From the NCBI RefSeq assembly GCF_020379485.1, contig NW_026014632.1:1-64000 (forward strand): DNA of 64,000 nucleotides. Direction: 5' to 3'. The stretch comes from Brassica napus (taxonomy: Eukaryota; Streptophyta; Magnoliopsida; Brassicales; Brassicaceae). The position numbers were made by a program, and so were the translations under genes. Of the stretch, positions 5,584 to 58,778 are shown piece by piece. Numbering within the stretch: the first letter of the stretch is position 1; every line of letters begins with the position of its first letter. The notes beneath the pieces were generated by a model. It made no database searches, was not told where the DNA came from, and saw nothing but the letters and a program-made list of their open reading frames with translations.

Positions 5584-5745
5584 ACGGATGTCATGTGTGT
5601 GCTGACGGACACAGACGGACACAGACGGACACACACGGACAGCCCTGGACGTCCTGTGTGTGCTGGCGGACACCCACGGACGTCCTGCATGTACTGACCC
5701 AGACAGCCCACGTGGGCCAAATCACTGAACAGTCCACGGGAAGGG
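5584..5745. repeat. minisatellite, left segment
   Basis: The stretch is made of the same 10-bp (GGACACACAC-like) and 21-bp (GGACGTCC...GTGCTGAC) modules as the main array, plus one linker with CCCACGTGGGCC and the CACGGGAAGGG end. It stops within a linker exactly at the target duplication of the CRM-like element; the rest of that linker resumes at 12761. It is therefore the left end of the array at 12766-29102. Confidence 0.95.
5741..5745. repeat. target site duplication AAGGG (left)
   Basis: AAGGG directly precedes the 5' LTR and recurs directly after the 3' LTR at 12761-12765. Its normal context in the array linker (CACGGGAAGGGTCAGCGTG) is restored if the element is removed. Confidence 0.95.
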
Positions 5746-6699: not shown

Positions 6700-6701
6700 A
6701 G

Positions 6702-6713
6702 TGGTATCAGAGC
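6702..6713 (+). other. primer binding site, tRNA-iMet type
   Basis: TGGTATCAGAGC starts two bases after the 5' LTR. It is complementary to the 3' end of initiator Met tRNA, the usual primer in plant CRM and other chromoviruses. Confidence 0.92.
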
Positions 6714-7187
6714 CACTCTTCCGGTATCTCTTTTCATCCATCTTCTCATCTATCATTTTCTTCAAAAAAAAAAAGAAATTCTTCTTCTATCTATCTTTGA
6801 ATCCGGGCCCCGCTTTACCATCCATATATATTAAAATAAAAGAAAGAAAGATCTAATCAAAAAAAAAAAAAAAGAAAGAAAATATATCAAAAGTTTTCAA
6901 TTGTGGTTTGGTGGTGGAAGAGTAAGCCTGCTGGCCGAGGAGAAACCCGGCCTTGGAGGTGGTTAATACCGATTCCCCTTGTTAAATCTCTTATCTTTAT
7001 ATCTTGTCTCTTGGGTGTTTCACTTGGGATTCTCATTTTGGGTATCTAGTTTGTTCTCTTAGAACTTTGAGGGAAACTCTCTTGTGTGACTACCAAATTG
7101 AGTGAAACACGTGTGTGGGCAAGGATAAACACCTGAGTGTGTGAGGTTTTTAATCTAACTTTACCTTGTTTAAGTTTTCAGGTAGCC
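6714..7187 (+). other. untranslated leader of the CRM-like element
   Basis: There is no gene here. The leader contains two A-rich runs (about 6767-6777 and 6858-6874) and T-rich stretches. It ends with TTTTCAGG just upstream of the gag ATG, which looks like a splice acceptor. A spliced leader is possible but unproven. Confidence 0.6.
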
Positions 7188-8290
7188 ATGGATAGTGAAG
7201 ATGAAAGAAACCGACCCGGAAATTCACATGCCGGATTATCTAACTTGCAAATGTGTGCTCTCAATGATTCTATGTCTAACTTGTTGAATACAGGTTTGGA
7301 GGCAATCCATCAGAGGCTAGATGAACTTCAGGGCCATCCAGTCAGCCACGAACCAGAAAGATGACCATCCAAGGAGGAACAGCCGTCCGACCTAGAAATC
7401 CGAGAAGAGTCTTATGATGATGATCGATCCATCAACTGTCCAAGGAGAGTTCCTAGGCATCAAAACCGAGGTGATGTCAATCCCTTTGGTAGAAATGAAA
7501 GAACCAATGATGGCTTGGGTGGTTTGAAATTGAAAATTCAAGTTTTGATGGCAAAAATGATCCGGATGCTTTTCTTGAATGGGAAAGAAAAATTGAACTT
7601 GTGTTTAATTGTCAAAATTTTTCTGATATTAAAAAGGTTAGACTTGCTGCTGCTGAGTTACTGGCTATGCTATTAACTGGTATGATCGAGTTTGTGACTA
7701 GCAGGAGGAGAGCAGGTGAGGCGCCAGTTGATACATGGGATGAGCTTTCCCTGCTGATGCGGAGACGCTTTTTTCCCGACCATTACCACAGAGATCTACA
7801 CCATAAACTCAGGCGTTTGCTTCAAGTTTCTAAGTCAGTTGAGGACTATCACCAGGAGATTGAGACCTTGATGATCAAAGCTGATGTAGAAGAGCCCTTA
7901 GACGCCACCATGGCCAGATTTTTACCGGCTCAACTGGGACATACAAGACCGCATGGAGCTGGAAGACTATGACAGCATGGAGCAGATGTTACACAAGGCC
8001 GTGCTGATCGAGCAACAAGTCAAGAGAAAGGGTCTCACTAAACCGACCTTTGCTTCTAAAACAACCTTTGCTTCCAAGCCAAACTATCAAGACAAGGGTA
8101 AGTCTTCTTCCACAACAAATACAGCTTTTCAGACAAATGTCCCTGCTCGTGTTAATAGAGAAAAGAAAGAAAAGAAGCTACCAAACGAACCAGAGACATC
8201 CAATGCTTTAGGTGTCATGGCCTGGCCACTATGCCAACCGATGTCCAAACCAAAAGGTGATGGTGCTCATGGAGAATGGAGAAGTCGAAT
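7188..8290 (+). pseudogene. gag of the CRM-like element, broken
   Basis: The ATG at 7188 opens a frame (MDSEDERNRPGNSHAG) that ends in a TGA at ~7362. Gag-like sequence then continues in other frames. The retrotransposon gag domain is clear around 7530-7920 (FLEWERKIELVFNCQNF, then FFPDHYHRDLHHKLRRL), followed after a frameshift near 7920 by MEQMLHKAVLIEQQVKRKG. A degraded CCHC zinc knuckle (GHYANRCPNQK) lies near 8215-8255. At least one stop and two or three frameshifts prevent a full product. Gag would package element RNA; the zinc knuckle would bind it. Confidence 0.85.
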
Positions 8291-9178
8291 CTGAAGAAGA
8301 CAAGAAGGATATCGGACCAGTGTATGATGATGATCATGAGGAAGAAGAACTTGACTTCCGGTTCATGGTCCCCTTTGTTACTAGGAAGGTCTTGGACGAC
8401 ACCATTGATCCCATCTTTGATGAGGAGGTCGATGGAGGGATCAATGAGTTTGCTCGACCTTCGTGGAGAGTTCTGATCCGATCTATGATGAGGATGTTTT
8501 TGATGAGCCAAGCCATGGTTCACTACTGGTTACTAGGCGTGCCTTGAGTGTCCAACCAAAATCCAATGACAAAGAACAAAGGGAGAATCTCTTTCACTCT
8601 AGATGTCTCATATCTGATAAAGTTTGTTCTTTAATTATTGATGGAGGTAGTTGCACTAATGTGGCTAGTGACACCCTTGTAAAGAAACTTGGGCTTGTTA
8701 CTCGGCCTCTTTCTCGTCCTTTCAGGTTGGAGTGGCTCAATGAGTCCGAGAACAGTATGTGAAGGAGCAAGTCACGGTTCCACTCTCCATTGGCCGATAT
8801 GAGGATGAGGTTGTTTGCAATGTGCTTCCCATGGATGCTTGCCATGTTCTCTTGGGCCGGCCTTGGCTATTTAACAAGAAGGCAGTGCATGATGGTTTCA
8901 CAAACCGCACTCATTTGATCATAAAGGAAAGAAGATCACCTTGGTGCCTTTGTCGCCTTCGGAAGTCCATCAAGACCAGGTCCAACTTAAGAAGAACCAA
9001 GACCAAGACTCTAAAGCTGATAAACCTGAGACCAGTACCAGAAACTCCAACTTCTTTGTCAAAGAAAGTCAGGTAAGGAAGTCTCTTTGCTCTCAAAAGC
9101 CATTCTCTTACTGATTTATAAAGAGTCTCTCTGGCCTCATCTTCTTCTGACCTTGCACCGGAGATTCTGAGTGAGTTT
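8291..9178 (+). pseudogene. protease region of the CRM-like element, broken
   Basis: After an acidic spacer (EEDKKD, DDDHEEEELDF), the frame at 8463-8762 carries LIIDGGSCTNVASDTL, the aspartic protease active-site region in the CRM form (Asp-Gly-Gly). A nearby frame (8759-9076) continues with LLGRPWLFNKKAVHDG, the C-terminal flap side of the fold. Frameshifts near 8530 and 8760 separate the parts. The enzyme would cut the Gag-Pol polyprotein. Confidence 0.8.
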
Positions 9179-10838
9179 TTAGGTATCTTGCAGGATTATT
9201 CTGATGTGTTTCCAGAAGAAAATCCCAAAGGATTGCCACCGGTGAGAGGCATGAGCATCAGATCGATCTCGTCCCGGGCGGGCCTCTCTACCGAACCGCC
9301 AGCGTACCGCACCATTCCGGTCGAGAGACAAGGAACTGCAGAAACAGATCAAAAACTTGCTTGAGAAGGGATACATCAGAGAGAGTCTCAGTCCTGTGCC
9401 GTGCCTGTTCTACTTGTACCAAAGAAGGATGGCTCCTGGAGGATGTGTGGACTGCCGGCCATAAACAACATCACAGTAAAGTCTCGACATCCTATCCCTC
9501 GTCTTGATGATATGCTTGATGAACTCCATGGTTCTAAGTAGTTTTCTAAGATAGATTTGAGAAATGGCTATCATCAGATTAGGATGAAAAGGTGATGAAT
9601 GGAAAACGGCCTTTAAAACAAAACTAGGTTTGTATGAGTGGCTTGTCATGCCCTTTGGTCTCACTAATGCACCTAGTACTTCCATGCGCCTAATGAATCA
9701 TGTCTTGAGGTGTTTTATTGGTCATTTTGTTGTGGTTTACTTTGATGACATTCTTATTTACAGCAAAAGCCTTGATGAGCACCAACAGAACTTGAAATCT
9801 GTTCTTGAAGTCCTTAGAAAGGAACGTTTGTTTGCTAACCTTGGAAAGTGTTATTTTGGCACAGATCATGTGGTCTTTCTAGGTTTTGTTGTAGGTGCAG
9901 ATGGCTTGAGAGTGGTCGAGCAGAAGGTCCAAGCAATCCGGGACTGGCCGATTCCGACCATCATTGGTGAATTAAGAAGCTTCCATGGCCTTGCCGGCTT
10001 CTATAGGCGATTTGTTCAAAACTTCAGTACCTTGGCCGCTCCTCTTATTGAAGTAATCAAGAAGAACGTGGGGTTCAAATGGGGACCAGCTCAGGAAGAA
10101 GCATTCGAAATCCTTAAAGGGAAGTTGACTCACGCCCCTTTACTTGTACTTCCAGATTTTTCTAAAGCTTTTGAAATCGAATGTGATGCTTCTGGTGTTG
10201 GTATTGGTGCTGTGTTGATGCAGGATGGAAAATCAGTGGCTTATTTCAGTGAGAAGCTTGGAGGAGCTATGCTCAACTACCCCACATACGACCAAAAACT
10301 CTATGCCTTGGTGAGGGCCCTTCAAATGTTGCAGCACTATCTTTGGCCTAAGGAGTTCATCATCCACACTGATCATCAGTCTCTAAGACACCTTAAGGGT
10401 CAGCAGAAGCTCAACAAGAGGCATGCTCGTTAGATGGAGTTCATTGGGACATTCCCTTATGTGATCAAGTACAAACATAGTAAGGAGAATGTTGTGGCCG
10501 ATGCATTGTCTCGAAGGTATACTCTTCTCTCAGCCCTTGAAACAAAATTGCTTGGTTTTGAGTTTATCAAAGATTTATACGCATCTGATCAAGATTTCAA
10601 AGAGGTTTTCCGAAAATGTTCCAAGGTCGCTTATGGAAAGTATTTTCAAAACTCTGGATTCCTATTCCTTGATAACCGCTTGTGCGTGCTCCAATGTTCT
10701 TTGAGGGAGTTGTTTCTCAGGGAAGCTCATGGAGGAGGTCTTATGGGACACTTTGGTGTTAAGAAAACTTACAAGGCGGTTCATGATCACTTCTATTGGC
10801 CAAGCTTGATGAAAGATGTGGAACGGATATGTAGCTGA
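9179..10838 (+). pseudogene. reverse transcriptase and RNase H of the CRM-like element, broken
   Basis: The RT N-terminal part (9180-9630) is recognisable but frame-shifted, with an in-frame TAG near 9540 (HGSK-stop-FSKIDL). From 9630 a 267-codon frame carries [13 protein letters not shown], the catalytic [11 protein letters not shown] (~9730-9762), the RT thumb and then RNase H with [16 protein letters not shown]. It ends at TAG (10431-10433) where related elements have Trp. RNase H continues in the same frame from 10434 (VVADALSRR), followed by the integrase zinc-binding region ([18 protein letters not shown]) up to a TGA at 10836. These are point stops rather than large losses, so decay looks gradual. 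Confidence 0.88.
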
Positions 10839-11797
10839 TGTGTGGTGTGCAAGAAGTCTAAGTCCAAATCTTCAAACCACGGTTTGTATTCTACACTTCC
10901 TATTCCTTCTCATCCTTGTGTAGACATTTCTATGGATTTCGTGTTAGGATTGCCAAGGTCTAAGTCTGGACGAGATTCAATCTTTGTTGTTGTAGACAGA
11001 TTTTCGAAAATGGCTCATTTCATTCCTTGTCATAAAACTGATGATGCCACACAAGTTGCTGATTTGTTCTTTAGAGAGATTGTTAGATTGCATGGAATGC
11101 CTAACACCATTGTATCTGATCGCGATTCTAAGTTCCTTAGTTATTTTGGAAAACCTTATGGTCTAACTAGGAACATGATTGATGATTTTCACAACTTGTC
11201 ATCCGCAAACTGATGGTCAAACTGAAGTTGTTAATCGAACCTTGTCTGCTCTGCTTAGATCTTTGGTTAAAAAGAATCTTAGGCTTTGGGAAGAATGCTT
11301 ACCAAATGTTGAGTTTGCTTACAATCATGCAATGCATTCTGCTACAAAGTTTTCTCCTTTTGACGTTGTTATGGGTTTAATCCTTTGTGCCCACTTGATC
11401 TTTTACCTTTGCCTTTGAGTGAAAGAGTTAGTACAGATGGCAAGAGGAAGGCGGCCACTATCAAAAAGCTACATGAACAGGTTCATGCAAACATTGAGGC
11501 CAAGACCGAGATCTATAAAAGATATGCCAATCAGAAAAGAAAGGAGGTTATTTTCAAAGAAGGTGATCTTGTCTGGGTTCACTTGAGAAAGGAGCGATTT
11601 CCGGAAGAAAGAAAGTCTAAACTTATGCCTCGGGTCGATGGTCCATTCCAGATCCTTAAGAAGATCAATGACAATGTTTATCAGGTTGATCTTCAAGGTA
11701 AGTATGACATTTCTTCGAGCTTTAACGTTTCTGATCTTTCCTCTTTTCTTGTAGATGATCCGGATTTGTGGTCAAATCCTTTTGAAGAAGGAGGGAA
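10839..11797 (+). pseudogene. integrase of the CRM-like element, broken
   Basis: The frame at 10842-11213 has the second Cys pair ([10 protein letters not shown]) and the catalytic core with [11 protein letters not shown] and [13 protein letters not shown], which supply the first two catalytic Asp. After a frameshift near 11180 the glutamate-bearing [16 protein letters not shown] follows, then a second shift near 11400. The C-terminal part has [13 protein letters not shown] and [14 protein letters not shown], the GPF-type module. This last frame stays open through the PPT and far into the 3' LTR, to 12341. Confidence 0.87.
11781..11797 (+). other. polypurine tract of the CRM-like element
   Basis: A purine run containing GAAGAAGGAGGGAA lies directly before the TGATG of the 3' LTR. 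It doubles as coding sequence (FEEGGN) of the pol tail. Confidence 0.85.
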
Positions 11798-12760
11798 TGA
11801 TGTGCCCCAGTCCAAGGATCAGTCCATGGAATCAGATCAGAACGAGGATCAGAACGTCCGAAACAACGCAACTGAGGTTCAGTCCATCGATCGGGCCGAA
11901 CAGACTGCTCGGGCCGTGTATCGTCTCGACCCGCACTCGTCCGAATTGGAGCTTCAACATAACCCGCGACCAGATGGCCAAATCAACCGTACTGAAGTTC
12001 GCCTTTCCCGTCCTGTTCGTCATGCTAAGTCCATCGGTCAAGCAGGAAGTGAAGTTGATCAAGTGGAATCCAAATCCGACCATGGTCTCTCTCTCTTAAG
12101 CCATCTCGGCCGAACCGGGGATCGTTCTGATGAACTGATCCGACACTTCGATCAGTTCATGAACTTTGATCAGCCAAATCTCTCTAAGGCAAGACTCTTA
12201 AGGTTGTCCGAAGACATAGCCACCTTTTGGTCCAGAACAGTCCATGAAAATCACCCGTCCTTACATGAAGACTGTACCGGCCGTGTACTGCTCCTTACCG
12301 CGGGACGTGCTATCAGTTACACCGAACCTGGACAAGAGTAGCCGAAGAGTTCAAATCGACCAGTCAACATTATTTTCTGTGCTTGACTAGATCTGGTCTT
12401 CTATCTATTTTCTATGTCTCTTTTCATACATTTTTATTTATTATCTTTGACTACATGTTATATAAGTATGAGAACACATCCTTGAAATAAGATAATCGAT
12501 TTTCCTTATTCATTTTGAGATTTCTTTCTTTGTTCTTTGATTAGAACATTCTTGTTCCCTTGGTGAGGCTATCTCCAAGTGAATCCCCTTTCTTTGGGCC
12601 GGACTTGTTTGTCAAATCAAGCGGCCATTGAGAGGTATAGTAGTATCATTGGGTCTTCCGCATCCCTTTGTGTCACTAAACAATCCATTGGTTCTCTATC
12701 TCTTCAGATCGAGTTCATATCATCAGATCCGGTTGAGTGTTCGTTCCTTAGGGTTCTTCA
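11798..12760 (+). repeat. 3' LTR of the CRM-like element
   Basis: The LTR runs from TGATGTGCCCC to GGGTTCTTCA and is followed by the AAGGG duplication. The frame that starts in integrase (11385) continues here for about 180 codons, with an acidic, Asn/Gln-rich start ([16 protein letters not shown]), and stops at 12341. A TATA box lies at 12459-12465. Confidence 0.93.
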
Positions 12761-12765
12761 AAGGG
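12761..12765. repeat. target site duplication AAGGG (right)
   Basis: AAGGG follows the 3' LTR and matches 5741-5745. The next bases (TCAGCGTGCTGAGTCC) are the regular continuation of the minisatellite linker. Confidence 0.95.
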
Positions 12766-13299
12766 TCAGCGTGCTGAGTCCAACGACCAACGTGCTGATA
12801 TGTGTACTGATGGACACCCACAGACGTCATGTGTGTGCTGACGGACACACACGAACACAAATGGACAGCCACGGATGTCCTGTGTGTACTGACGGACACC
12901 CACGGACGTCCTGTGTGTGCTGATGGACACCCACGGACGTCCTGTGTGTACTGAACAGACAGCCCACTTGGGCCAAAATCACCCTAACAGTCCACGGGAA
13001 GGGCCAGCGTGCTGAGTCCAAGGACCAGCGTGCTGATATGTGTACTGATGGACAGCCACAGACGTCCTCTGTGTGCTGACGGATAGCAACAGACACCCAC
13101 GGACGTGCTGTGTGTGCTGGCGGACACCCACAGACGTCCTTTGTGTACTGAACAGACAGCCCACGTGGGCCAAAATCACCAAAACAGTCCACGGGAAGGG
13201 CCAGGGTGCTGAGTCCAAGGACAAAAATGCTGATATGTGTACTGATGGACAGCCACAGACGTCCTGTGTGTGCTGACGGACACACACGGACACACATGG

Positions 13300-16200
13300 A
13301 CAGCCACGGACGTCCTGTGTGTGCTGACGGACACACACATACGTCCTGTGTGTGCTGACGGACACCCACGGACATCCTGTGTGTGCTGACGGACACACAC
13401 GGACACACACGGACAGTCACAGACAGTCACGGACGTCCTGTGTGTGCTGACGGACAACCACGGACAGCCACAGATGTCCTGTGTGTGCTGGCGGACACCC
13501 ACTGACGTCCTTTGTGTACTGAACAGACAGCCCACGTGGGCCAAAATCACCCAAACAGTCCACAGGAAGGGCCAGCGTGCTGAGTCCAAGGACCAACGTG
13601 CTGATATGTGTACTGATGGACAGCCACGGACGTCCTGTGTGTGCTGACGGACACACACAGACACACACGGACGTCCTGTGTGTGCTGACGGCCACCCACG
13701 GACGTCCTGTGTGCTGACGGATACCCACGGACGTCCTTTGTGTACTGAACAGACAGCCCACGTGGGCCAAAATCACCCGAACAGTCCACGGGAAGGGCCA
13801 GCGTGCTGATAAGTGTACTGATGGACAGCAACGGACATCCTGTGTGTGCTGACGGACACACACGCACACACACGGACATCCTGTGTGTGCTGACTGACAC
13901 ACATGGACGTCCTATGTGTGCTGACAGACAGCCACAGACAGCCACGAACGTCCTGTGTATGCTGGCAGACACCCACAGACACACACGGGCACACACGGAC
14001 AGCCACAGACGTCCTGTGTGTGCTGACGGACAGCCACTGACAGCCACAAACGTCCTGTGTGTGCTGGCGGACACCCACGGACGTCCTGTGTGTACTGAAC
14101 AGACAGCCCACGTGGGCCAAAATGACCCAAACAGTCCACGGGAAGGGCCAGCGTGCTGAGTCCAAGGACCAACGTGCTGAGTTCAAGGACCAACGTGCTG
14201 ATATGTGTACTTATGAACAGCCACGGACGTCCTGTGAGTGCTGACGGACACAGACGGACACACATGGACACACACAGGCAGCCACGGACATCCTGTGTGT
14301 GCTGACGGCCACCCACGGACGTCCTGTGTGCTGACGGACACCCACGGACGTCCTTTGTGTACTGAACAGACAGCCCACGTGGGCCAAAATCACCCGAACA
14401 GTCCACGGGAAGGACCAACGTGCTGATATGTGTACTGATGGACAGCCACGGACGTCCTGTGTGTGCTGACGGACACACACAGACACACACGGACAGCCAC
14501 GAACGTCCTGTGTGTGCTGACGGACACCCACGGACGTCATGTGTGTACTGAACAGACAGCCCACGTGGGCCAAAATCACCCAAACAGTCCACGGGAAGGG
14601 CCAGCGTGCTGAGTCCTAGGACCAGCGTGCTGATATGTGTACTGAAGGACAGCCACGGACACACACAGACGCACACACATGTCCTGTGTGTGCTGACGGA
14701 CACACACAGACACACACACACGTCCTGTGTGTGCTGACGGACACACATAGATGTTCTGTGTGTGCTGACGGACAGCCATTGACAGCCACGAACGTCCTGT
14801 GTGTGCTGGCGGAGACCCACAGACACACACGGACACAGACGGACAGCCACAGACGTCCTGTGTGTCCTAGCGGACACCCACAGACATCGTGTGTGTACTG
14901 AACAGACAGCCCACGTGGGCCAAAATCACCAAAACAGTCCACGGGGAGGGCCAGCGTGCGGAGTCTAAGAACCAACGTGCTGATATGTGAACTGATGGAC
15001 AGACACGGATGCCCTGTGTCTGCTGACGGTCACAGACGGACACACACAGACAGCCACAGACGTCCTGTGTGTGCTGGCGGACACCCACAGACATCCTGTG
15101 TGTACTGACCAGACATCCCACGTGGGCCAAAATCACCCTAACAGTCCACGGGAAGGGCCAGCATGCTGAGTCCAAGGACCAGCGTATTGATATGTGTACT
15201 GATGGACAGCCACGGACGTCCTCTATGTGCTGACGGATAGCCACAGACACCCACGGACGTCCTGTGTGTGCTGGGGGACACCCACAGACGTCCTTTGTGT
15301 ACTGAACAGACAGCCCACGTGGGCCAAAATCACCAAAACAGTCCACGGGAAGGGCCAGGGTGCTAAGTCCAAGGACAAAAAAGCTGATATGTGTACTGAT
15401 GGACAGCCACGGACGTCCTGTGTGTGCTGATGGACACACACGGACACACACAGACAGCCACGGACGTCCTGTGTGTGCTGACGGACACCCACGGACGTCC
15501 TTTGTGTACTGAACAGACAGCCCACTTGGGCCAAAATCACCCGAACAGTCCACGGGAAGGGCCAGCGTACAGATATGTGTACTGATGGACAGCCACTGAC
15601 ATCCTGTGCGTGCTGACGGACACACACGCACACACACGGACGTCCTGTGTGTGCTGACGGACACACATGGACGTCCTGTGTGTCCTGACAGACAGCCACG
15701 GACAGCCACGAACGTCCTATGTATGCTGGCAGACACCCACTGACACAGACGGGCACACACGGACAGCCACAGATGTCCTTTGTGTGCTGACGGACAGCCA
15801 CTGACAGCCACAAACGTCCTGTGTGTGCTGGCGGACACCCATGGACGTCTTGTGTGTACTGAACAGACAGCCCACGTGGGCCAAAATGACCCAAACAGTC
15901 CACGGGAAGGGCCAGCGTGCTAAGTCCAAGGACCAACGTGCTGAGTTCAAGGACCAACGTGCTGATATGTGTACTGATGAACAGCCACAGACGTCCTGTG
16001 AGTGCTGACGGACACACACGGACACACACGGACACACAAAGGCAGCCACAGACATCCTGTGTGTGTTGGCGAACACCCACAGACGTCCTGTGAGTACTCA
16101 ACAGACAGCCCACGAGGGCCAAAATCACCCGAACAGTCCACGGGAAGGGTCAGCGTGCTGAGTCCAAGGACCAACGTGCTGATATGTGTACTGATGGACA

Positions 16201-19200
16201 GCCACGGACGTCCTGTGTGTGCTGACGGACACACACAGACACACACGGACAGCCACGGACGTCCTGTGTGTGCTGACGGACCCCCACGGACGTCATGTGT
16301 GTACTGAACAGACAGCCCACGTGGGCCAAAATCACCCAAACTATCCAAGGAAGGGCCAACGTGCTGAGTCCAAGGACCAGCGTGCTGAGTCCAACGACCA
16401 GCGTGCTGATATGTGTACTGAAGGACAGCCACGGACTTCCTGTGTGTGCTGACGGACACACACAGAGACACACACACGTCCTGTGTGTACTGAGGGACAC
16501 ATATAGACGTCCTGTGTGTGCTGACGGACAGCCATTGACAGCCACGAACGTCCTGTGTGTGCTGGCGGACACCCACAGACACACACAGACACAGACGGAC
16601 AGCCATGGACGTCCTGTGTGCCCTGGCGGACACCCACAGACATCTTGTGTGTACTGAACAGACAGCCCACGTGGGCCAAAATCACCCAAACAGTCCACGG
16701 GGAGGGCCAGCGTGCGGAGTCCAAGAACCAACATGCTGAAATGTGAACTGATGGACAGACACGGACGTCCTGTGTGTGCTGACGGTCACAGACGGACACA
16801 CACAGACAGCCACAGACGTCCAGTGTGTGCTGGCGGACACCCACGGAAATCCTGTGTGTACTGACCAGACATCCCACGTGGGCCAAAATCACCCGAACAG
16901 TCCACGGGAAGGATGAGCGTGCTGAGTCCAAGGACCAACGTGCTTATATGTGTACTGATGGACAGCCACAGACGTCCTATGTGTGCTGGCGGACACCCAC
17001 GGACATCCTGTGTGTACTGACCAGACATCCCACGTGGGCCAAAATCACCCGAACAGTCCACGGGAAGGGTGAGCGTGCTGAGTCCAAGGACCAACGTGCT
17101 TATATGTGTACTGATGGACAGCCACGGACGTCCTATGTGTGCAGACGGACACACACGGACACACACGGACAGCCCCGGATGTCCTGTGTGTGCTGACGGA
17201 CACACACGGACGTCCTGTGTGTGCTGATGGACACCCACACACGTCTTGTGTGTGCTGACTGCTGACGGACACCCACAGACGTCCTGTGTGTACTGAATAG
17301 ATAGCCCACGTGGGCCAAAATTACCCGAACAGTCCATGGGAAGGGTTAGCGTGCTGAGTCCAACGACCAACGTGCTGATATGTGTACTGATGGACAGCCA
17401 CAAACGTCATATGTGTGCTGACGGACACACACAGACACACACTGACACACACGGAGACACACGGACAGCCACGGATGTCATGGGTGTACAAATGAACACC
17501 CACGGACGTCCTGTGTGTGCTGATGGACACCCACGGACGTCCTATGTGTACTGAACAGACAGCCCACGTGGGCCAAAATCACTCGAGCCGTCAACGGGAA
17601 GGGCCAGCATGTTGAGTCCAAGGACCAGTGTGCTGATATGTGTACTGATGGACAGCCACGAACGTCCTGTGTGTGCCGACAAACACACACGGACGTCCTG
17701 TGTGTGCTGACAGACACACACGGACGTCCTGTGTGTGCTGATAGACAGCCTCAGATAGCCACGAACGTCCTGTGTATGCTGGCGGACACACACGGGTCTT
17801 ACACAGCGTGCGGAGTCCAAGAACCAACGTGCTGAAATGTGAACTGATGGACAGACACGGACGTCCTGTGTGTGCTGACGGTCACAGACGGACACACATG
17901 GACAGCCACAGACGTCCTGTGTGTGCTGGCAGACACCCACGGACATCCTGTGTGTACTGACCAGACATCCCACGTGGGCCAAAATCACCCGAACAGTCCA
18001 CGGGAAGGGTCAGCGTGCTGAGTCCAACGACCAACGTGCTGATATGTGTACTGATGGACAGCCACAGACGTCATATGTGTGCTGACGGACACACACGGAC
18101 ACACACGGAGACACACGGACGTCCTGTGTGTGCTGACGGACACAAACAGACGTCCTGTGTGTGCTGACGGACACCCACACACGTCCTGTGTGTGCTGACT
18201 GCTGACGGACACCCACGGACGTCCTGTGTGTACTGGATAGACAGCCCACGTGGGCCAAAATCACCCGAACAGTCCACGGGAAGGGGTTAGCATGCTGAGT
18301 CCAACGACCAACGTGCTGATATCTGTACTGATGGACAGCCACAGACGTCATGTGTGTGCTGACGGACACACACGGACACACACGGACACACACGGACACA
18401 CACGGACAGCCACGGATGTCATGTGTGTACAGACGAACACCCACGGATGTCCTGTGTGTGCTGATGGACACCCACGGACGTCCTATGTGTACTGAACAGA
18501 CAGCCCACGTGGGCCAAAATCACCCGAACCGTCCACGGGAAGGGCCAGCATGTTGAGTCCAAGGACCAGTGTGCTGATATGTGTACTGATGGACAGCCAC
18601 GGACGTCCTGTGTGTGCTGACAGACACACGCGGACGTCCTGTGTGTGCTGACGGACACACACGGACGTCCTAGCCACGGATAGCCACGAACATCCTGTGT
18701 ATGCTGGCGGACACACACGGACACACACAGACAGCCACAGACGTCCTGTGTGTGCTGACGGACAGCCACAGAAAGCCACAGACGTCATGTGTGTGCTGGT
18801 GGACACCCACGGACGTCCTCTGTACTGAACAAACAGCCCACGTGGGCCAAAATCACCCAAACAGTCCACAGGAAGGGCCAGCGTGCTGAGTCCAAGGACC
18901 AACGTCCTGATATGTGTACTGATGGATAGCCACGGACGTCCTGTGTGTGCTGACGCACACAAACGAACACACACGGACAGCCACGGACGTCCTGTGTGTG
19001 CTGGCGGACACCCACAGACGTCCTGTGTGTACTGACCAGACAGCCCACGTGGGCCAAAATCACCCGAACAGTCCACGGGAAGGGTCAACGTGCTGAGTCC
19101 AAGGACCAACATGCTGATATGTGTACCGATGGACAGTCACGGACGTCCTGTGTGTGCTTACGGACACACACGGACAGCCTCGGACGTCCTCTGTGAGCTG

Positions 19201-21117
19201 ATGGACACACACGAATGTCCTGTGTGTGCTGACGGACACCCACGGACGTCCTGTGTGTACTGAGAAGACAGCCCACGTGGGCCAAAATCACCCGAACAGT
19301 CCACGAGAAGGGCCAGGGTGCTAAGTCCAAGAACCAATGTGCTGATATGTATACTGATGGACAGCCACGGACGTCCTGTGTGTGTTGACGGAAAACACAG
19401 ACACACATGGACAGCCACGGACTTCCAGTGTGTGTTGACGGGACACACACGGACGTCCTGTGTGTGCTGACGGACACCCACAGACGTCATGTATGTGCTG
19501 ACGGACACACACGAACAGTCACAGACGTCCTTTGTGTGCTGACGGACAGCCACGGACGTCCTGTGTGTGCTGACGGACACACACGGACGTCCTGGGTGTG
19601 CTGACAGACAGCCACGGACAGCCACGAACATCCTGTGTATGCTGGTGGACACCCACAGACACACACAAACACATACGGACAGCCACATACGTCCTGTGTG
19701 TGCTGACGGACAGCCACATACAGCCACAGACGTCATGTGTGTGCTGGCGGACACCCACGGATGTCCTGTGTGTACTGAACAGACAGCCCACGTGGGGCAA
19801 AATTACCCAAACAGTCCACGGGAAGGGCCAGCGTGCTGAGTCAAGGGACCAACGTGCTGATATGTGTACTGATGGATAGCCACGGACATCATGTGTGTGT
19901 TGACAGACACAGACGGACAAACACGGACAGCCACGGACATCCTGTGTGTGCTGGCAGACACCCACGGACGTCCTGTGTGTACTGACCAGACAGCCCACGT
20001 GGGCCAAAATCACCCGAACAGTCCACAGGAAGGGTCAATGTTCTGAGTCTAAGGACCAACATGCTGATATGTGTACTGATAGACAGTCACGGACGTCCTG
20101 TGTGTGCTGACGGAGACACACGGACAGCCCCGGACGTCCTTTGTGTGGTGACGGACACACACGGACATCCTGTGTGTGCAGGCGGATACCCACGGACGTC
20201 CTCTATGTACTGAACAAACAGCCCACGTGGGCCAAAATCACCCAAACAGTCCACGAGAAGGGCCAGCGTGCTGAGTCCAAGGACCAATGTGCTGATATGT
20301 ATACTGATGGACAGCCACCGACGTCCTGTGTGTTCTGACGGACACACATGGACACACATGGACAGCCACGGATGTCCTGTGAGTGCTGATGGACACACAG
20401 GGACACACATGGACAGCCACAGACGTCGTGTGTGTGCTGAAGGACACACACGGACGTCCTATGTGTGCTGACGGACACCCACAGACATCTTGTGTGTGCT
20501 GACGGACACACACAGACAGTCACGGACGTCCTGTGTGTCCTAACGGAGAGCCACGGACAGCCCCGGACGTCCTGTATGTGCTGGCGGACACCCACGGACG
20601 TCCTGTGTGTATTGAACAGACAGCCCACGTGGGCCAAAATCACCCAAACAGTCCCCGGGAAGGGCCAGCGTGCTGAGTCTATGGACCAACGTGCTGATAT
20701 GTGTACTGATGGACAGCCACGGACGTCCTGTTTGTGCTGATGGACACACACGGACAGACACGAACACACATGGACAGCCACGGATGTCCTGTGTGTGCTG
20801 GCGGACACCCACAGACGTCCTGTGTGTACTGAACAGACAGCCCAGGATGTCCTGTGTGTGCTGAGTCCAAGGAACAACGTGCTGATATGTGTACTGATGG
20901 ACAGCCACGGACGTCATGTGTCTTCTGACGGACAGACACGGACACACACGGACAGCCATGGACAGCCACAGACGTCCTGTGTGTGCTGGCGGACACCCAC
21001 GGACGTCCTCAGTGTACTGAACAGAGAGCCCACGTGGGCCAAAATCACCCAAGCAGTCCACTAGAAGGGCCAGCGTGCTAAGTCCAAGGACCAACGTGTT
21101 GATATGTATACTGATAA
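13300..21117. repeat. large tandem duplication, copy A (~7.8 kb)
   Basis: Distinct landmarks recur at a constant offset of 7818 bp: for example 13444 and 21262, 14238 and 22056, 15227 and 23045. The offset falls slightly to 7807 by ~19.4 kb and to ~7703 by ~20.7 kb. Boundaries are placed where similarity starts (about 13300) and where the block begins again (about 21118). They are approximate to some tens of bases because all sequence here is repetitive. Confidence 0.9.
13530..13541. other. example of the linker palindrome with a G-box core
   Basis: GCCCACGTGGGC is a perfect 12-bp palindrome around CACGTG, followed by CAAAATCACC. The same palindrome occurs in almost every linker, with rare variants such as CCCACTTGGG (15519) and CCCACGAGGG (16107). 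CACGTG is the G-box bound by plant bZIP and bHLH factors; that any protein binds here is inference. Confidence 0.7.
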
Positions 21118-24100
21118 ACAGCCACGGACGTCCTGTGTGTGCTGACGGACACACACATACGTCCTGTGTGTGCTGACGGACACCCACAGACATCCTGTGT
21201 GTGCTGACGGACACACACGGACACACACGGACAGTCACGGACAGTCACGGACGTCCTGTGTGTGCTGACGGACAACCACGGACAGCCACAGATGTCCTGT
21301 GTGTGCTGGCGGACACCCACTGACGTCCTTTGTGTACTGAACAGACAGCCCACGTGGGCCAAAATCACCCAAACAGTCCACGGGAAGGGCCAGCGTGCTG
21401 AGTCCAAGGACCAACGTGCTGATATGTGTACTGATGGACAGCCACGGACGTCCTGTGTGTGCTGACGGACACACACAGACACACACGGACGTCCTGTGTG
21501 TGCTGACGGCCACCCACGGACGTCCTGTGTGCTGACGGACACCCACGGACGTCCTTTGTGTACTGAACAGACAGCCCACGTGGGCCAAAATCACCCGAAC
21601 AGTCCACGGGAAGGGCCAGCGTGCTGATATGTGTACTGATGGACAGCCACGGACATCCTGTGTGTGCTGACGGACACACACGCACACACACGGACATCCT
21701 GTGTGTGCTGACTGACACACATGGACGTCCTATGTGTGCTGACAGACAGCCACAGACAGCCACGAACGTCCTGTCTATGCTGGCAGACACCCACAGACAC
21801 ACACGGGCACACACGGACAGCCACAGACGTCCTGTGTGTGCTGACGGACAGCCACTGACAGCCACAAACGTCCTGTGTGTGCTGGCGGACACCCACGGAC
21901 GTCCTGTGTGTACTGAACAGACAGCCCACGTGGGCCAAAATGACCCAAACAGTCCACGGGAAGGGCCAGCGTGCTGAGTCCAAGGACCAACGTGCTGAGT
22001 TCAAGGACCAACGTGCTGATATGTGTACTTATGAACAGCCACGGACGTCCTGTGAGTGCTGACGGACACAGACGGACACACATGGACACACACAGGCAGC
22101 CACGGACATCCTGTGTGTGCTGACGGCCACCCACGGACGTCCTGTGTGCTGACGGACACCCACGGACGTCCTTTGTGTACTGAACAGACAGCCCACGTGG
22201 GCCAAAATCACCCGAACAGTCCACGGGAAGGACCAACGTGCTGATATGTGTACTGATGGACAGCCACGGACGTCCTGTGTGTGCTGACGGACACACACAG
22301 ACACACACGGACAGCCACGAATGTCCTGTGTGTGCTGACGGACACCCACGGACGTCATGTGTGTACTGAACAGACAGCCCACGTGGGCCAAAATCACCCA
22401 AACAGTCCACGGGAAGGGCCAGCGTGCTGAGTCCTAGGACCAGCGTGCTGATATGTGTACTGAAGGACAACCACGGACACACACAGACGCACACACATGT
22501 CCTGTGTGTGCTGACGGACACACACAGACACACACACACGTCCTGTGTGTGCTGACGGACACACATAGATGTTCTGTGTGTGCTGACGGACAGCCATTGA
22601 CAGCCACGAACGTCCTGTGTGTGCTGGCGGAGACCCACAGACACACACGGACACAGACGGACAGCAACAGACGTCCTGTGTGTCCTAGCGGACACCCACA
22701 GACATCGTGTGTGTACTGAACAGACAGCCCACGTGGGCCAAAATCACCAAAACAGTCCACGGGGAGGGCCAGCGTGCGGAGTCCAAGAACCAACGTGCTG
22801 ATATATGAACTGATGGACAGACACGGATGCCCTGTGTCTGCTGACGGTCACAGACGGACACACACAGACAGCCACAGACGTCCTGTGTGTGCTGGCGGAC
22901 ACCCACGGACATCCTGTGTGTACTGACCAGACATCCCACGTGGGCCAAAATCACCCTAACAGTCCACGGGAAGGGCCAGCATGCTGAGTCCAAGGACCAG
23001 CGTATTGATATGTGTACTGATGGACAGCCACGGACGTCCTCTATGTGCTGACGGATAGCCACAGACACCCACGGACGTCCTGTGTGTGCTGGGGGACACC
23101 CACAGACGTCCTTTGTGTACTGAACAGACAGCCCACGTGGGCCAAAATAACCAAAACAGTCCACGGGAAGGGCCAGGGTGCTGAGTCCAAGGACAAAAAA
23201 GCTGATATGTGTACTGATGGACAGCCATGGACGTCCTGTGTGTGCTGATGGACACACACGGACACACACAGACAGCCACGGACGTCCTGTGTGTGCTGAC
23301 GGACACCTACGGACGTCCTTTGTGTACTGAACAGACAGCCCACTTGGGCCAAAATCACCCGAACAGTCCACGGGAAGGGCCAGCGTGCAGATATGTGTAC
23401 TGATGGACAGCCACTGACATCCTGTGCGTGCTGACGGACACACACGCACACACACGGACGTCCTGTGTGTGCTGACGGACACACATGGACGTCCTGTGTG
23501 TGCTGACAGACAGCCACGGACAGCCACGAACGTCCTATGTATGCTGGCAGACACCCACTGACACAGACGGGCACACACGGACAGCCACAGATGTCCTTTG
23601 TGTGCTGACGGACAGCCACTGACAGCCACAAACGTCGTGTGTGTGCTGGCGGACACCCATGGACGTCCTGTGTGTACTGAACAGACAGCCCACGTGGGCC
23701 AAAATGACCCAAACAGTCCACGGGAAGGGCCAGCGTGCTGAGTCCAAGGACCAACGTGCTGAGTTCAAGGACCAACGTGCTGATATGTGTACTGATGAAC
23801 AGCCACAGACGTCCTGTGAGTGCTGACGGACACACACGGACACACACGGACACACAAAGGCAGCCACAGACATCCTGTGTGTGTTGGCGAACACCCACAG
23901 ACGTCCTGTGAGTACTCAACAGACAGCCCACGAGGGCCAAAATCACCCGAACAGTCCACGGGAAGGGTCAGCGTGCTGAGTCCAAGGACCAACGTGCTGA
24001 TATGTGTACTGATGGACAGCCACGGACGTCATGTGTGTGCTGACGGACACACACAGACACACACGGACAGCCACGGACGTCCTGTGTGTGCTGACGGACC

Positions 24101-27100
24101 CCCACGGACGTCATGTGTGTACTGAACAGACAGCCCACGTGGGCCAAAATCACCCAAACTATCCAAGGAAGGGCCAACGTGCTGAGTCCAAGGACCAGCG
24201 TGCTGAGTCCAACGACCAGCGTGCTGATATATGTACTGAAGGACAGCCACGGACTTCCTGTGTGTGCTGACGGACACACACAGAGACACACACACGTCCT
24301 GTGTGTACTGAGGGACACACATAGACGTCCTGTGTGTGCTGACGGACAGCCATTGACAGCCACGAACGTCTTGTGTGTGCTGGCGGACACCCACAGACAC
24401 ACACAGACACAGACGGACAGCCACGGACGTCCTGTGTGTCCTGGCGGACACCCACAGACATCTTGTGTGTACTGAACAGACAGCCCACGTGGGCCAAAAT
24501 CACCCAAACAGTCCACGGGGAGGGCCAGCGTGCGGAGTCCAAGAACCAACATGCTGAAATGTGAACTGATGGACAGACACGGACGTCCTGTGTGTGCTGA
24601 CGGTCACAGACGGACACACACAGACAGCCACAGACGTCCAGTGTGTGCTGGCGGACACCCACGGACATCCTGTGTGTACTGACCAGACATCCCACGTGGG
24701 CCAAATCACCCGAACAGTCCACGGGAAGGGTGAGCGTGCTGAGTCCAAGGACCAACGTGCTTATATGTGTACTGATGGACCGCCACGGACGTCCTATGTG
24801 TGCTGGCGGACACCCACGGACATCCTGTGTGTACTGACCAGACATCCCACGTGGGCCAAAATCACCCGAACAGTCCACGGGAAGGGTGAGCGTGCTGAGT
24901 CCAAGGACCAACGTGCTTATATGTGTACTGATGGACAGCCACGGACGTCTTATGTGTGCTGACGGACACACACGGACACACACGGACAGCCCCGGATGTC
25001 CTGTGTGTGCTGACGGACACACACGGACGTCCTGTGTGTGCTGATGGACACCCACACACGTCTTGTGTGTGCTGACTGCTGACGGACACCCACAGACGTC
25101 CTGTGTGTACTGAATAGATAGCCCACGTGGGCCAAAATTACCCGAACAGTCCATGGGAAGGGTTAGCGTGCTGAGTCCAACGACCAACGTGCTGATATGT
25201 GTACTGATGGACAGCCACAGACGTCATATGTGTGCTGACGGACACACACGGACACACACGGACACACACGGAGCCACACGGACAGCCACGGATGTCATGG
25301 GTGTACAAATGAACACCCACGGACGTCCTGTGTTTGCTGATGGACACCCACGGACGTCCTATGTGTACTGAACAGACAGCCCACGTGGGCCAAAATCACT
25401 CGAACCGTCAACGGGAAGGGCCAGCATGTTGAGTCCAAGGACCAGTGTGCTGATATGTGTACTGATGGACAGCCACGGACGTCCTGTGTGTGCTGACAAA
25501 CACACACGGACGTCCTGTGTGTGCTGACAGACACACACGGACGTCCTGTGTGTGCTGATAGACAGCCTCAGATAGCCACGAACGTCCTGTGTATGCTGGC
25601 GGACACACACGGGTCTTACACAGCGTGCGGAGTCCAAGAACCAACGTGCTGAAATGTGAACTGATGGACAGACACGGACGTCCTGTGTGTGCTGACGGTC
25701 ACAGACGGACACACATGGACAGCCACAGACGTCCTGTGTGTGCTGGCAGACACCCACGGACATCCTGTGTGTACTGACCAGACATCCCACGTGGGCCAAA
25801 ATCACCCGAACAGTCCACGGGAAGGGTCAGCGTGCTGAGTCCAACGACCAACGTGCTGATATGTGTACTGATGGAGAGCCACAGACGTCATATGTGTGCT
25901 GACGGACACACACGGACACACACGGAGACACACGGACGTCCTGTGTGTGCTGACGGACACAAACAGACGTCCTGTGTGTGCTGACGGACACCCACACACG
26001 TCCTGTGTGTGCTGACTGCTGACGGACACCCACGGACGTCCTGTGTGTACTGGATAGACAGCCCACGTATGCCAAAATCACCCGAACAGTCCACGGGAAG
26101 GGGTTAGCATGCTGAGTCCAACGACCAACGTGCTGATATGTGTACTGATGGACAGCCACAGACGTCATGTGTGTGCTGACGGACACACACGGACACACAC
26201 GGACACACACGGACAGCCACGGATGTCATGTGTGTACAGACGAACACCCACGGATGTCCTGTGTGTGCTGATGGACACCCACGGACGTCCTATGTGTACT
26301 GAACAGACAGCCCACGTGGGCCAAAATCACCCGAACCGTCCACGGGAAGGGCCAGCATGTTGAGTCCAAGGACCAGTGTGCTGATATGTGTACTGATGGA
26401 CAGCCACGGACGTCCTGTGTGTGCTGACAGACACACGCGGACGTCCTGTGTGTGCTGACGGACACACACGGACGTCCTAGCCACGGATAGCCACGAACAT
26501 CCTGTGTATGCTGGCGGACACACACGGACACACACAGACAGCCACAGACGTCCTGTGTGTGCTGACGGACAGCCACAGAAAGCCACAGACGTCATGTGTG
26601 TGCTGGTGGACACCCACGGACGTCCTCTGTACTGAACAAACAGCCCACGTGGGCCAAAATCACCCAAACAGTCCACAGGAACGGCCAGCGTGCTGAGTCC
26701 AAGGACCAACGTCCTGATATGTGTACTGATGGATAGCCACGGACGTCCTGTGTGTGCTGACACACACAAACGAACACACACGGACAGCCACGGACGTCCT
26801 GTGTGTGCTGGCGGACACCCACAGACGTCCTGTGTGTACTGACCAGACAGCCCACGTGGGCCAAAATCACCCGAACAGTCCACGGGAAGGGTCAACGTGC
26901 TGAGTCCAAGGACCAACATGCTGATATGTGTACTGATGGACAGTCACGGACGTCCTGTGTGTGCTGACGGACACACACGGACAGCCTCGGACGTCCTCTG
27001 TGAGCTGATGGACACACACGAATGTCCTCTGTGTGCTGACGGACACCCACGGACGTCCTGTGTGTACCGAGAAGACAGCCCACGTGGGCCAAAATCACCC

Positions 27101-28836
27101 GAACAGTCCACGAGAAGGGCCAGGGTGCTGAGTCCAAGAACCAATGTGCTGATATGTATACTGATGGACAGCCACGGACATCCTGTGTGTGTTGACGGAA
27201 AACACAGACACACATGGACAGCCACGGACTTCCAGTGTGTGTTGACGGGACACACACGGACGTCCTGTGTGTGCTGACGGACACCCACAGACGTCATGTA
27301 TGTGCTGACGGACACACACGAACAGTCACAGACGTCCTTTGTGTGCTGACGGACAGCCACGGACGTCCTGTGTGTGCTGACGGACACACACGGACGTCCT
27401 GGGTGTGCTGACAGACAGCCACGGACAGCCACGAACATCCTGTGTATGCTGGTGGACACCAACAGACACACACAAACACATACGGACAGCCACATACGTC
27501 CTGTGTGTGCTGACGGACAGCCACAGACAGCCACAGACGTCATGTGTGTGCTGGCGGACACCCACGGATGTCCTGTGTGTACTGAACAGACAGTCCACGT
27601 GGGGCAAAATTACCCAAACAGTCCACGGGAAGGGCCAGCGTGCTGAGTCAAGTGACCAACGTGCTGATATGTTTACTGATGGATAGCCACGGACATCATG
27701 TGTGTGTTGACAGACACAGACGGACAAACACGGACAGCCACGGACATCCTGTGTGTGCTGGCAGACACCCACGGACGTCCTGTGTGTACTGACCAGACAG
27801 CCCACGTGGGCCAAAATCACCCGAACAGTCCACAGGAAGGGTCAATGTTCTGAGTCTAAGGACCAACATGCTGATATGTGTACTGATAGACAGTCACGGA
27901 CGTCCTGTGTGTGCTGACGGAGACACACGGACAGCCCCGGACGTCCTTTGTGTGGTGACGGACACACACGGACATCCTGTGTGTGCAGGCGGATACCCAC
28001 GGACGTCCTCTATGTACTGAACAAACAGCCCACGTGGGCCAAAATCACCCAAAAAGTCCACGAGAAGGGCGAGCGTGCTGAGTCCAAGGACCAATGTGCT
28101 GATATGTATACTGATGGACAGCCACCGACGTCCTGTGTGTTCTGACGGACACACATGGACACACATGGACAGCCACGGATGTCCTGTGAGTGCTGATGGA
28201 CACACAGGGACACACATGGACAGCCACAGACGTCGTGTGTGTGCTGAAGGACACACACGGACGTCCTAGGTGTGCTGACGGACACCCACAGACATCTTGT
28301 GTGTGCTGATGGACACACACAGACAGCCCACGTGGGCCAAAATCACCCAAACAGTCCCCGGGAAGGGCCAGCGTGCTGAGTCTATGGACCAACGTGCTGA
28401 TATGTGTACTGATGGACAGCCACGGACGTCCTGTTTGTGCTGATGGACACACACGGACAGACACGAATACACATGGACAGCCACGGATGTCCTGTATGTG
28501 CTGGCGGACACCCACAGACGTCCTGTGTGTACTGAACAGACAGCCCAGGATGTCCTGTGTGTGCTGAGTCCAAGGAACAACGTGCTGATATGTGTACTGA
28601 TGGACAGCCACGGACGTCATGTGTCTTCTGACGGACAGACACGGACACACACGGACAGCCATGGACAGCCACAGACGTCCTGTGTGTGCTGGCGGACACC
28701 CACGGACGTCCTCAGTGTACTGAACAGAGAGCCCACGTGGGCCAAAATCACCCAAGCAGTCCACTAGAAGGGCCAGCGTGCTAAGTCCAAGGACCAACGT
28801 GTTGATATGTATACTGATGAACAGCCACGGACGTCC
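21118..28836. repeat. large tandem duplication, copy B (~7.7 kb)
   Basis: This copy follows copy A head to tail and repeats the order of its modules and even its rare variants, such as the GGTCTTACACAGCG oddity at 17795 and 25612. In stretches compared by eye the copies differ at about one base in a hundred. A deletion of ~104 bp (about 28270-28330) removes one module group in B. The near identity points to a recent event. Confidence 0.88.
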
Positions 28837-29102
28837 TGTGTGTGCTGACGGACACACACGGACACACATGGACAGCCACGGACGTCATGTGTGTGCTGAT
28901 GGACACACATGAACGTCCTGTGTATGCTGACAGACACCCACGGACGTCCTGTGTGTGCGGACGGACATAGACGGACAGTCATGGACGTCCTGTGTGTGCC
29001 GAGAGACATCCACGGACAGCCCCAGACGTCCTGTGTGTGCTGGCGGACACCCACGGACGTCATGTGTGTACTGAACAGCAGCTGGGGTAAAATCACCCAA
29101 AC

Positions 29103-32640: not shown

Positions 32641-32644
32641 TCAA

Positions 32645-32772
32645 TGGACAGCCTGGCGGACACCCAGAGACACACACAAACATACACGGACAGCCTTGGA
32701 CATCCTGTGTGTGCTGACGGACAGCCACAGACAGCCACAGGACGTCCTGTGTGTGCTGGCGGACACCCACAC
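32645..32772. repeat. minisatellite fragment captured in the internal region
   Basis: About 130 bp of 10- and 21-bp modules (GGACAGCC, GGACATCC...GTGCTGAC, GGACACCCAC) lie isolated from the main arrays, between the leader above and an inverted protease fragment. One 21-bp module has an inserted base (CACAGGACGTCC). Confidence 0.9.
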
Positions 32773-33131
32773 CCACTCTTAAACTGCACCCTTCCTCTAT
32801 GACAGTCCAGAGTGGCCCGGTTCTTTCCAAGCCAGTCCATGCCTAATATCACCTCATGATTCTTAAGGCAGACCACAACCAGATCCATAGGCATAACTCT
32901 ATCCTGGATAACTATTGGGATATCCTTTACTCTCCCTAATGAATGCATTACGTGCCCACCGGCCGCATTCACTATGCAAGGATCATCCTCCGTTTCCATC
33001 TGGAACAACCCTTTTCCGATCATATCTGGGCTCACAAAGCTGTGTGTAGCTCCAGTATCAAACAGTACGTGTGTTTCCACACCACCAATACATAGGGTCC
33101 CTACATAAGACCCACCTTTTCTAATCATTTA
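32773..33131 (-). pseudogene. inverted protease fragment of a Tekay-like element
   Basis: On the minus strand the frame reads [20 protein letters not shown], the aspartic protease active site (Asp-Thr-Gly). It continues through [17 protein letters not shown] to RVQFKS, and then runs directly into minisatellite without a stop. It corresponds to residues 1-100 of the intact pol plus some codons upstream, but with many differences, so it came from another lineage member. Its orientation is opposite to the surrounding LTRs. The 201-codon chimeric frame is a by-product, not a gene. Confidence 0.85.
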
Positions 33132-45861: not shown

Positions 45862-45873
45862 CTATCCATCCTA
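45862..45873 (-). other. two in-frame TAG codons between gag and pol
   Basis: Gag ends with a TAG at 45871-45873, followed by Asp-Gly and a second TAG at 45862-45864. The frame is otherwise open and unchanged from gag to pol. Most plant chromoviruses of this kind are remembered as having one uninterrupted gag-pol frame, so these are either recent disabling mutations or a suppression site. No frameshift separates the two genes. Confidence 0.9.
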
Positions 45874-47513: not shown

Positions 47514-47576
47514 CATGAGTCCAAACGGCCAAGTGTGTGGTGAACCAATAACCCAACAAATCCTAGAATCAAGAAT

Positions 47577-47588
47577 GCTCTGATACCA
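47577..47588 (-). other. primer binding site of the Tekay-like element
   Basis: TGGTATCAGAGC on the minus strand, three bases inside the 5' LTR; tRNA-iMet type. Confidence 0.93.
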
Positions 47589-47591
47589 ACT

Positions 47592-58773: not shown

Positions 58774-58778
58774 CACAT
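58774..58778. repeat. target site duplication CACAT (right)
   Basis: Matches 55133-55137; followed by GGACAGCCACGGACGTCC, regular minisatellite. Confidence 0.9.

What the first reader, a model, noticed from the sequence alone, without database searches (positions are those of the whole stretch)
12766..29102. Minisatellite with a two-module 10 bp / 21 bp grammar
The array is not one repeated unit. It is text written with 10-bp words and 21-bp words, most opening with GGAC or close variants (AGAC, TGAC), in varying order, punctuated by a ~94-bp linker. The linker itself has an optional 21-bp part. Both lengths are close to one and two turns of B-DNA (about 10.5 bp), so every GGAC start stays on roughly the same face of the helix whatever the order. 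I know of no described plant satellite with this grammar. The module structure is seen directly; the helical meaning is inference.
Basis: partly seen in the sequence, partly recalled or inferred. Interest (0 to 1): 0.85.

Follow-up and report, generated by a model that had tools for sequence, protein, structure and literature searches.

The report
Modular mustard-family pericentromere satellite DNA
This is a block of repetitive DNA of the kind found beside Brassica centromeres, built from 10-letter and 21-letter words in a largely fixed word order and broken up by jumping genes; it is probably an already named repeat whose inner structure is more orderly than expected.

Summary
The array is real. 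A parse of 12762-29103 gives 475 ten-bp words (469 exactly 10), 280 twenty-one-bp words (271 exactly 21) and 58 linkers (usually 43+21+30 = 94 bp; the 21-bp part occurs 0, 1 or 2 times), leaving 62 of 16,342 bases unassigned. The order is not free. Two 21-bp words never meet (0 of 280; shuffles average 80). Each monomer is linker-(T1-5 W)2-11, and word spelling depends on position. The best helical period is 10.33 bp, not 10.5; most of the phasing follows from word lengths. The array is mainly two 7.8-kb copies (about 99% identical), resumes elsewhere in the window, and is split at two places by LTR-bounded insertions with clean target-site duplications. One antisense frame matches 298 "proteins"; of the 120 listed, 108 are named Brassica rapa or B. 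napus, 1 B. oleracea, and 11 are unnamed. The helical-function reading is not supported. The linker palindrome GCCCACGTGGGC is unusually conserved in the window; support elsewhere is weak.

The parts
12761..29102 (+). Main satellite array: 58 monomers of form A B(0-2) C (T1-5 W)2-11, a few with an extra partial linker
   Evidence: Parse of 12762-29103 with 62 of 16342 bases unassigned, grammar counts
13300..20519 (+). First copy of the 7.8-kb higher-order unit
   Evidence: 98.98% identical over 7220 columns to 21118-28326, shift 7818 bp; 63 differences in 7209 aligned bases by MAFFT
21118..28326 (+). Second copy of the 7.8-kb higher-order unit
12956..13049 (+). Example linker A(43)+B(21)+C(30) = 94 bp
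   Evidence: Parse
13524..13566 (+). Example linker part A with the palindrome GCCCACGTGGGC followed by CAAAATCACC
   Evidence: Parse; lowest-diversity stretch of the linker
5584..5745 (+). Left part of the same array, separated by a retrotransposon insertion
   Evidence: Parse; target-site duplication AAGGG at 5741-5745 and 12761-12765; without the insert an A|B linker junction is restored
5746..12760 (+). Ty3/gypsy retrotransposon (gag, RT/RNaseH, integrase SH3-like tail) inserted in the satellite; not part of it
   Evidence: Pfam; LTR pair 93.4% by BLAST, 95.6% over 948 aligned bases by MAFFT, gaps ignored
32643..32775 (+). Small satellite fragment in scrambled retrotransposon sequence
54547..55137 (+). 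Satellite block between LTR ends
55138..58773 (+). LTR-like-bounded insertion in the satellite (possibly a solo LTR), TSD CACAT; not part of it
   Evidence: no internal repeat pair over 150 bp in the self-comparison
58774..59802 (+). Continuation of the 54547-55137 satellite block, ending at a truncated retrotransposon RNaseH region

Best explanation
It is a pericentromeric heterochromatin satellite of the Brassica A genome, most likely the family published as TR238. The monomer is a composite: a 94-bp linker followed by a head TW, a variable middle of T(n)W blocks and a tail TW (T = 10 bp, W = 21 bp). Arrays grow and vary by gain and loss of modules (slippage of 10-bp T words, unequal exchange of 31-bp TW blocks, monomers, ~0.9-1.8-kb blocks and a 7.8-kb higher-order unit). 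They decay faster at CpG sites, as expected of methylated DNA, and act as a sink for LTR retrotransposons. Shown: anatomy, hierarchy, module-sized indels, insertions with TSDs, Brassica relatives. Inferred: methylation, heterochromatin, the slippage and exchange mechanism, identity with TR238.
For: Parse and grammar. The 7.8-kb copies differ by one 1-bp and one 10-bp gap, the latter one T word. Of 15 gaps between three older duplicated block pairs, 7 are exact sums of 10 and 21 (21, 20, 21, 20, 10, 21, 61), 29 and 32 are near, 45 and 16 are not, and four are 1-2 bp. CpG transitions between the two 7.8-kb copies 15 against 802 unchanged bases, CHG 8/1256, CHH 13/2010. Two inserts with perfect 5-bp TSDs, AAGGG and CACAT. 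Of the 120 listed antisense 'protein' hits of 298, 44 are B. napus (29 on one 47.1-Mb contig), 64 B. rapa, 1 B. oleracea, 11 unnamed (recounted); 111 of these 120 carry the linker-core peptide. Published: PCRBr and TR238 A-genome-specific (PMC2233773 passages); Peri-SRs PCRBr and TR238 on A01, A05, A06, A09, TR238 87,407 hits, and those pericentromeres invaded by CRM and Tekay LTR elements (PMC10106856 section 9).
Against: No TR238 sequence could be compared. 238 bp is a rare spacing here (2 of 57; modes are 207 and 350). One B. oleracea protein (P0048) carries the composite satellite, at odds with strict A-genome specificity. Rfam finds no family at gathering threshold in the window, although TR238 was found near rDNA derivatives (recalled from the Lim 2007 abstract). 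PMC5740159 does not list TR238 among its ten major Brassica repeats in the passages shown. The window's own species and chromosome position are not established; the genome search did not complete.
Confidence: 0.7

Rival explanations
1. Helical-register satellite: word lengths are held by selection at multiples of the DNA turn so that GGAC sites stay on one face of the helix or nucleosome.
For: Word starts within 150 bp are in register at 10.33 bp (0.817 vs 0.726 +/- 0.026 in shuffles, 0 of 200 reach it); jittering the linker length by up to 5 bp halves the register within 300 bp (0.767 to 0.389 +/- 0.054).
Against: At 10.5 bp there is no long-range coherence (R 0.034); fully shuffled module order gives 0.409 +/- 0.055 against 0.507 (17 of 300 reach it), and shuffled monomer order 0.553 +/- 0.071 (215 of 300 reach it). 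One fixed linker length is close to a single observation. Off-register changes also occur: 15 T or W words of other lengths and 16 unparsed inserts of 1-7 bp.
Confidence: 0.08
2. The satellite arose from the tandem-repeat-bearing 3' untranslated region of an LTR retrotransposon, as published for other plant satellites.
For: It lies directly against LTR ends in several places; such origins are published (search listing only).
Against: At two insertions the satellite is the target, with duplicated 5-bp sites (AAGGG, CACAT) on both sides. I saw no element in the window with the satellite between its coding region and 3' LTR, but this was not tested systematically, and the origin of the 32643-32775 scrap is open.
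Confidence: 0.1
3. A protein-coding repeat gene on the minus strand.
For: Minus-strand frames within the main array are open for up to 359 codons, and annotation pipelines call similar 'hypothetical proteins'.
Against: 31-bp and 10-bp units shift the frame; overlapping frames are open at once; 119 of the 120 listed hits have no Pfam domain.
Confidence: 0.01

Closest known systems
TR238 (Lim et al. 2007; B. rapa pericentromere)
   Same: Degenerate tandem repeat, Brassica A genome, found on few chromosomes, in pericentromeres with PCRBr and with CRM/Tekay elements (passages; section)
   Different: Reported unit of 238 bp; here linker spacings are 155-515 bp and 238 is a minor class. Sequence not compared; no module grammar in the passages read
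CentBr1/CentBr2 (176-bp Brassica centromere satellites)
   Same: Brassica heterochromatic satellites
   Different: 176-bp unit; no 176-bp linker spacing here
Minisatellites/VNTRs and composite satellites with higher-order repeats (recalled)
   Same: Short GC-rich words, copy-number changes, higher-order duplications
   Different: Two word classes with strict syntax plus a constant linker

Membership tests
TR238 | Sequence identity to the published repeat | not testable with these tools
   Lim et al. 2007 not held; no sequence in the passages and section read
TR238 | 238-bp unit | tested here: inconclusive
   238 bp is 2 of 57 linker spacings; modes 207 and 350
TR238 | A-genome specificity | tested here: inconclusive
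   108 of 120 listed hits (of 298) are B. rapa or B. napus, one is B. oleracea, 11 unnamed; which B. napus contigs are A or C is not known
TR238 | Pericentromeric location on a few chromosomes, mixed with LTR retrotransposons | tested here: inconclusive
   Ty3/gypsy mosaic present; listed hits cluster on a few contigs; the window's location unknown
Satellite DNA with higher-order repeats | Tandem monomers plus a repeated multi-monomer unit | tested here: met
   58 monomers; 7818-bp unit, two copies at about 99%
CentBr | 176-bp unit | tested here: not met
   No 176-bp linker spacing among 57

The most novel reading that the evidence does not exclude
The linker palindrome GCCCACGTGGGC (with CAAAAT) is a protein-binding box of the satellite, kept by function in the way of a CENP-B box, with the T/W text as a variable-length spacer between boxes held in helical register.
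Probability: 0.08. Interest if true: 0.7.

Novelty: new member of a known kind. Interest (0 to 1): 0.38.

Why it matters
If it is TR238, the family gains a real anatomy: a composite monomer with a strict word syntax, where a reference unit of 238 bp hides a variable-number system. That would explain why it was called degenerate, gives probes (the linker) for pericentromeres of crop Brassicas, and shows how gene annotation there can be polluted by satellite 'proteins'. The syntax also lets slippage, unequal exchange and CpG decay be counted separately in one array.

Tried and rejected
Linker string (22 bases, exact) searched in IMG/VR and GTDB contigs: 0 matches each. Rfam at gathering threshold: none. 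tRNA: none. Papers with four of the repeat's own strings: 0; '238 bp' degenerate Brassica repeat: 1, irrelevant; a word-length query: 0; a Brassica minisatellite query gave 13 papers, listing only. TR238 and pericentromere queries gave the papers read in part. RNA folding of two monomers gave z -2.06 and -2.58, modest, and to be expected from GGACGTCC beside CACACA/TGTGTG; not pursued.

Conservation of the linker palindrome: in a set with most of the second 7.8-kb copy dropped (A starting in 21100-28330 left out), CCCACGTGGGCCAAA is the least diverse 15-bp stretch (permutation p 0.0009; for 12, 18 and 20 bp p 0.018, 0.002, 0.002), and its CpG has 0 transitions in 35 copies (2 are CT) against 45 of 183 in W (Fisher p 0.0002). 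Copies are not independent, so these p values are too small. In Brassica proteins the same codon comparison is much weaker: H or C in 26 of 254 for the linker against 72 of 431 for W, p 0.02, with other residues left out (13 and 16); the first 120 proteins alone gave 19 of 200 against 57 of 355, p 0.04. So it is kept only as the novel case.

CpG decay against consensus: transitions 10.3% at CpG, 4.2% CHG, 5.4% other G/C, 2.7% A/T; word ends were left out there and copies are not independent, so the copy-to-copy count is the cleaner one.

Full report
What is there. The region 12761-29102 is a satellite array. I wrote a dynamic-programming parser with five modules: T (10 bp, six spellings), W (21 bp, two spellings) and linker parts A (43), B (21) and C (30), any order allowed, with penalties for gaps and an unassigned state. 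On 12762-29103 it covers all but 62 of 16,342 bases: 475 T, 280 W, 58 A, 61 B, 63 C. The library was read from this same sequence, so the parse is descriptive. The parse-free check is that 389 of 444 GGAC-to-GGAC gaps of at most 62 bp fall on sums of 10 and 21, against a fraction of 0.20 +/- 0.04 in 50 dinucleotide shuffles.

Grammar. Each of the 280 W follows a T directly and none follows W (within-monomer shuffles: mean about 80, minimum 62, of 1000). T-runs before W are 1 (176), 2 (45), 3 (35), 4 (21) and 5 (3), unassigned bits ignored. Of 58 A-led monomers the first T-run is 1 in 56 and the last is 1 in 56; W per monomer ranges from 2 to 11; B occurs 0, 1 or 2 times in 6, 46 and 6. A few monomers hold an extra partial linker (C is 63, A is 58). 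Spelling depends on place. The T before the first W is most often GGACAGCCAC (35 of 62), the T before the last W is GGACACCCAC (44 of 58), and the commonest inner T is GGACACACAC (70 of 182). The last W has A at its 16th base in 98% of 55, where the other three classes have G in 90-96%; the next-to-last W has G at its 20th base in 69% of 54, where the other classes have A in 84-100%. The unit is therefore a templated composite monomer with an elastic middle, and the simplest core is a 31-bp TW with extra T words.

Helix. Global best period is 10.33 bp (R 0.507, first half of the array, 382 words); at 10.5 bp R is 0.034. Shuffling all modules gives 0.409 +/- 0.055, with 17 of 300 reaching the observed value; shuffling whole monomers gives 0.553 +/- 0.071, 215 of 300 reaching it. 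Within 150 bp the register is 0.817 at 10.33, above module shuffles (0.726 +/- 0.026; 0 of 200 reach it), and at 10.5 it is 0.522 vs 0.449 +/- 0.032 (3 of 200 reach it). Jittering each linker by up to 5 bp lowers the register within 300 bp from 0.767 to 0.389 +/- 0.054. Since 10 + 21 = 31 = 3 x 10.33, register comes with the word lengths; the local excess is explained, in my reading, by the absence of WW. That last step is inference.

Hierarchy and change. 13300-20519 and 21118-28326 are 98.98% identical; by MAFFT they differ at 63 of 7209 aligned bases plus gaps of 1 and 10 bp. At module level the copies differ by one lost T and an end effect. Older duplications of about 1.78, 0.94 and 0.95 kb (94.7%, 93.0% and 89.5% identical) differ by gaps of 2, 21, 20, 21, 29, 20; 1, 16, 45, 10, 2; and 1, 32, 21, 61 bp: 7 of 15 are exact sums of 10 and 21, and six (1, 1, 2, 2, 16, 45) fit no such sum even loosely. 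Between the 7.8-kb copies, CpG transitions are 15 against 802 unchanged CpG bases, CHG 8 against 1256, CHH 13 against 2010, with 27 transversions. That is about three times the rate at CpG, consistent with methylation, though counts are small. Ages computed there use a rate recalled from memory (about 0.3 My for the duplication, about 1.5 My for the 5746-12760 element).

Surroundings. The satellite occurs also at 5584-5745, about 32643-32775, 54547-55137 and 58774 to about 59802. Two inserts split it: a Ty3/gypsy element at 5746-12760 with TSD AAGGG, which breaks an A|B linker junction, and an LTR-like stretch at 55138-58773 with TSD CACAT. Element 40710-49292 (TSD AGATT, LTRs 4 differences in 1701) is nested inside another element rather than in the satellite. 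For the satellite borders at 5583/5584, 29102/29103 and 54546/54547 no perfect matching TSD was found among the boundary pairs tried. Pfam names gag, protease, RT, RNaseH and integrase domains among the flanking frames; the labels CRM-like and Tekay-like used in my notes are recall and were not tested.

Relatives. The antisense frame 22685-23764 finds 298 proteins, 120 listed: 44 Brassica napus (29 on a 47.1-Mb contig with locus tags within YC2023_065979-066397, 8 on a 69.2-Mb contig, 7 on three others), 64 B. rapa (19 subsp. trilocularis; 45 on three contigs), 1 B. oleracea and 11 unnamed (tallied by eye, partition checked). All 120 align to the main array (best-HSP identity 40-71%, median 50%) and 111 of 120 hold the linker-core peptide. 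A search from the one B. oleracea protein found 285, 120 listed; apart from the query itself and one unnamed row these are B. rapa and B. napus. A flanking gag frame is 97-100% identical to B. rapa pieces that cover up to about 30% of it, and 98-99% to two longer unnamed ones. I read the satellite hits as spurious gene calls on satellite DNA, useful as tracers of its location.

Literature. PMC2233773 (passages) names a 238-bp degenerate tandem repeat, TR238, A-genome-specific together with PCRBr. PMC10106856 (passages; section 9 in full) places PCRBr/TR238 on A01, A05, A06 and A09, counts 87,407 TR238 hits, and says 37.00% and 34.41% of 773 full-length LTR elements in those pericentromeres are CRM and Tekay. 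PMC6092429 and PMC5740159 were seen as passages; the second does not list TR238 among its ten major repeats in the passages shown. Lim et al. 2007 was not held. No paper found holds the repeat's letters or, as far as the listings show, describes this grammar; these searches cover openly licensed papers only.

Verdict. A real and unusually orderly composite satellite of Brassica pericentromeric type, probably TR238. The word syntax appears undescribed in what I could read; the helical function is not supported; the conserved palindrome in the linker is worth one binding test.

Noticed in passing
12827-28884, minus strand: Long antisense frames in the satellite (up to 359 codons) resemble 298 'hypothetical' or unnamed proteins, nearly all listed ones from Brassica; very probably annotation artefacts.
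   Followed up: yes
40710-49292: Young nested Ty3/gypsy element (TSD AGATT, LTRs differing at 4 of 1701 bases) with open gag and pol frames on the minus strand.
   Followed up: partly
33147-54546: LTR-internal-LTR-internal-LTR arrangement of one element family, suggesting unequal recombination between LTRs.
   Followed up: no
32643-32775: A 130-bp satellite scrap between an internal retrotransposon fragment and an inverted protease fragment, like filler DNA from break repair.
   Followed up: no
29070-29102: The last linker before the LTR start is altered, with its palindrome lost.
   Followed up: no
59803-62531: A minus-strand Ty3/gypsy element cut off within RNaseH where it meets the satellite, with no LTR seen at the junction.
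   Followed up: no
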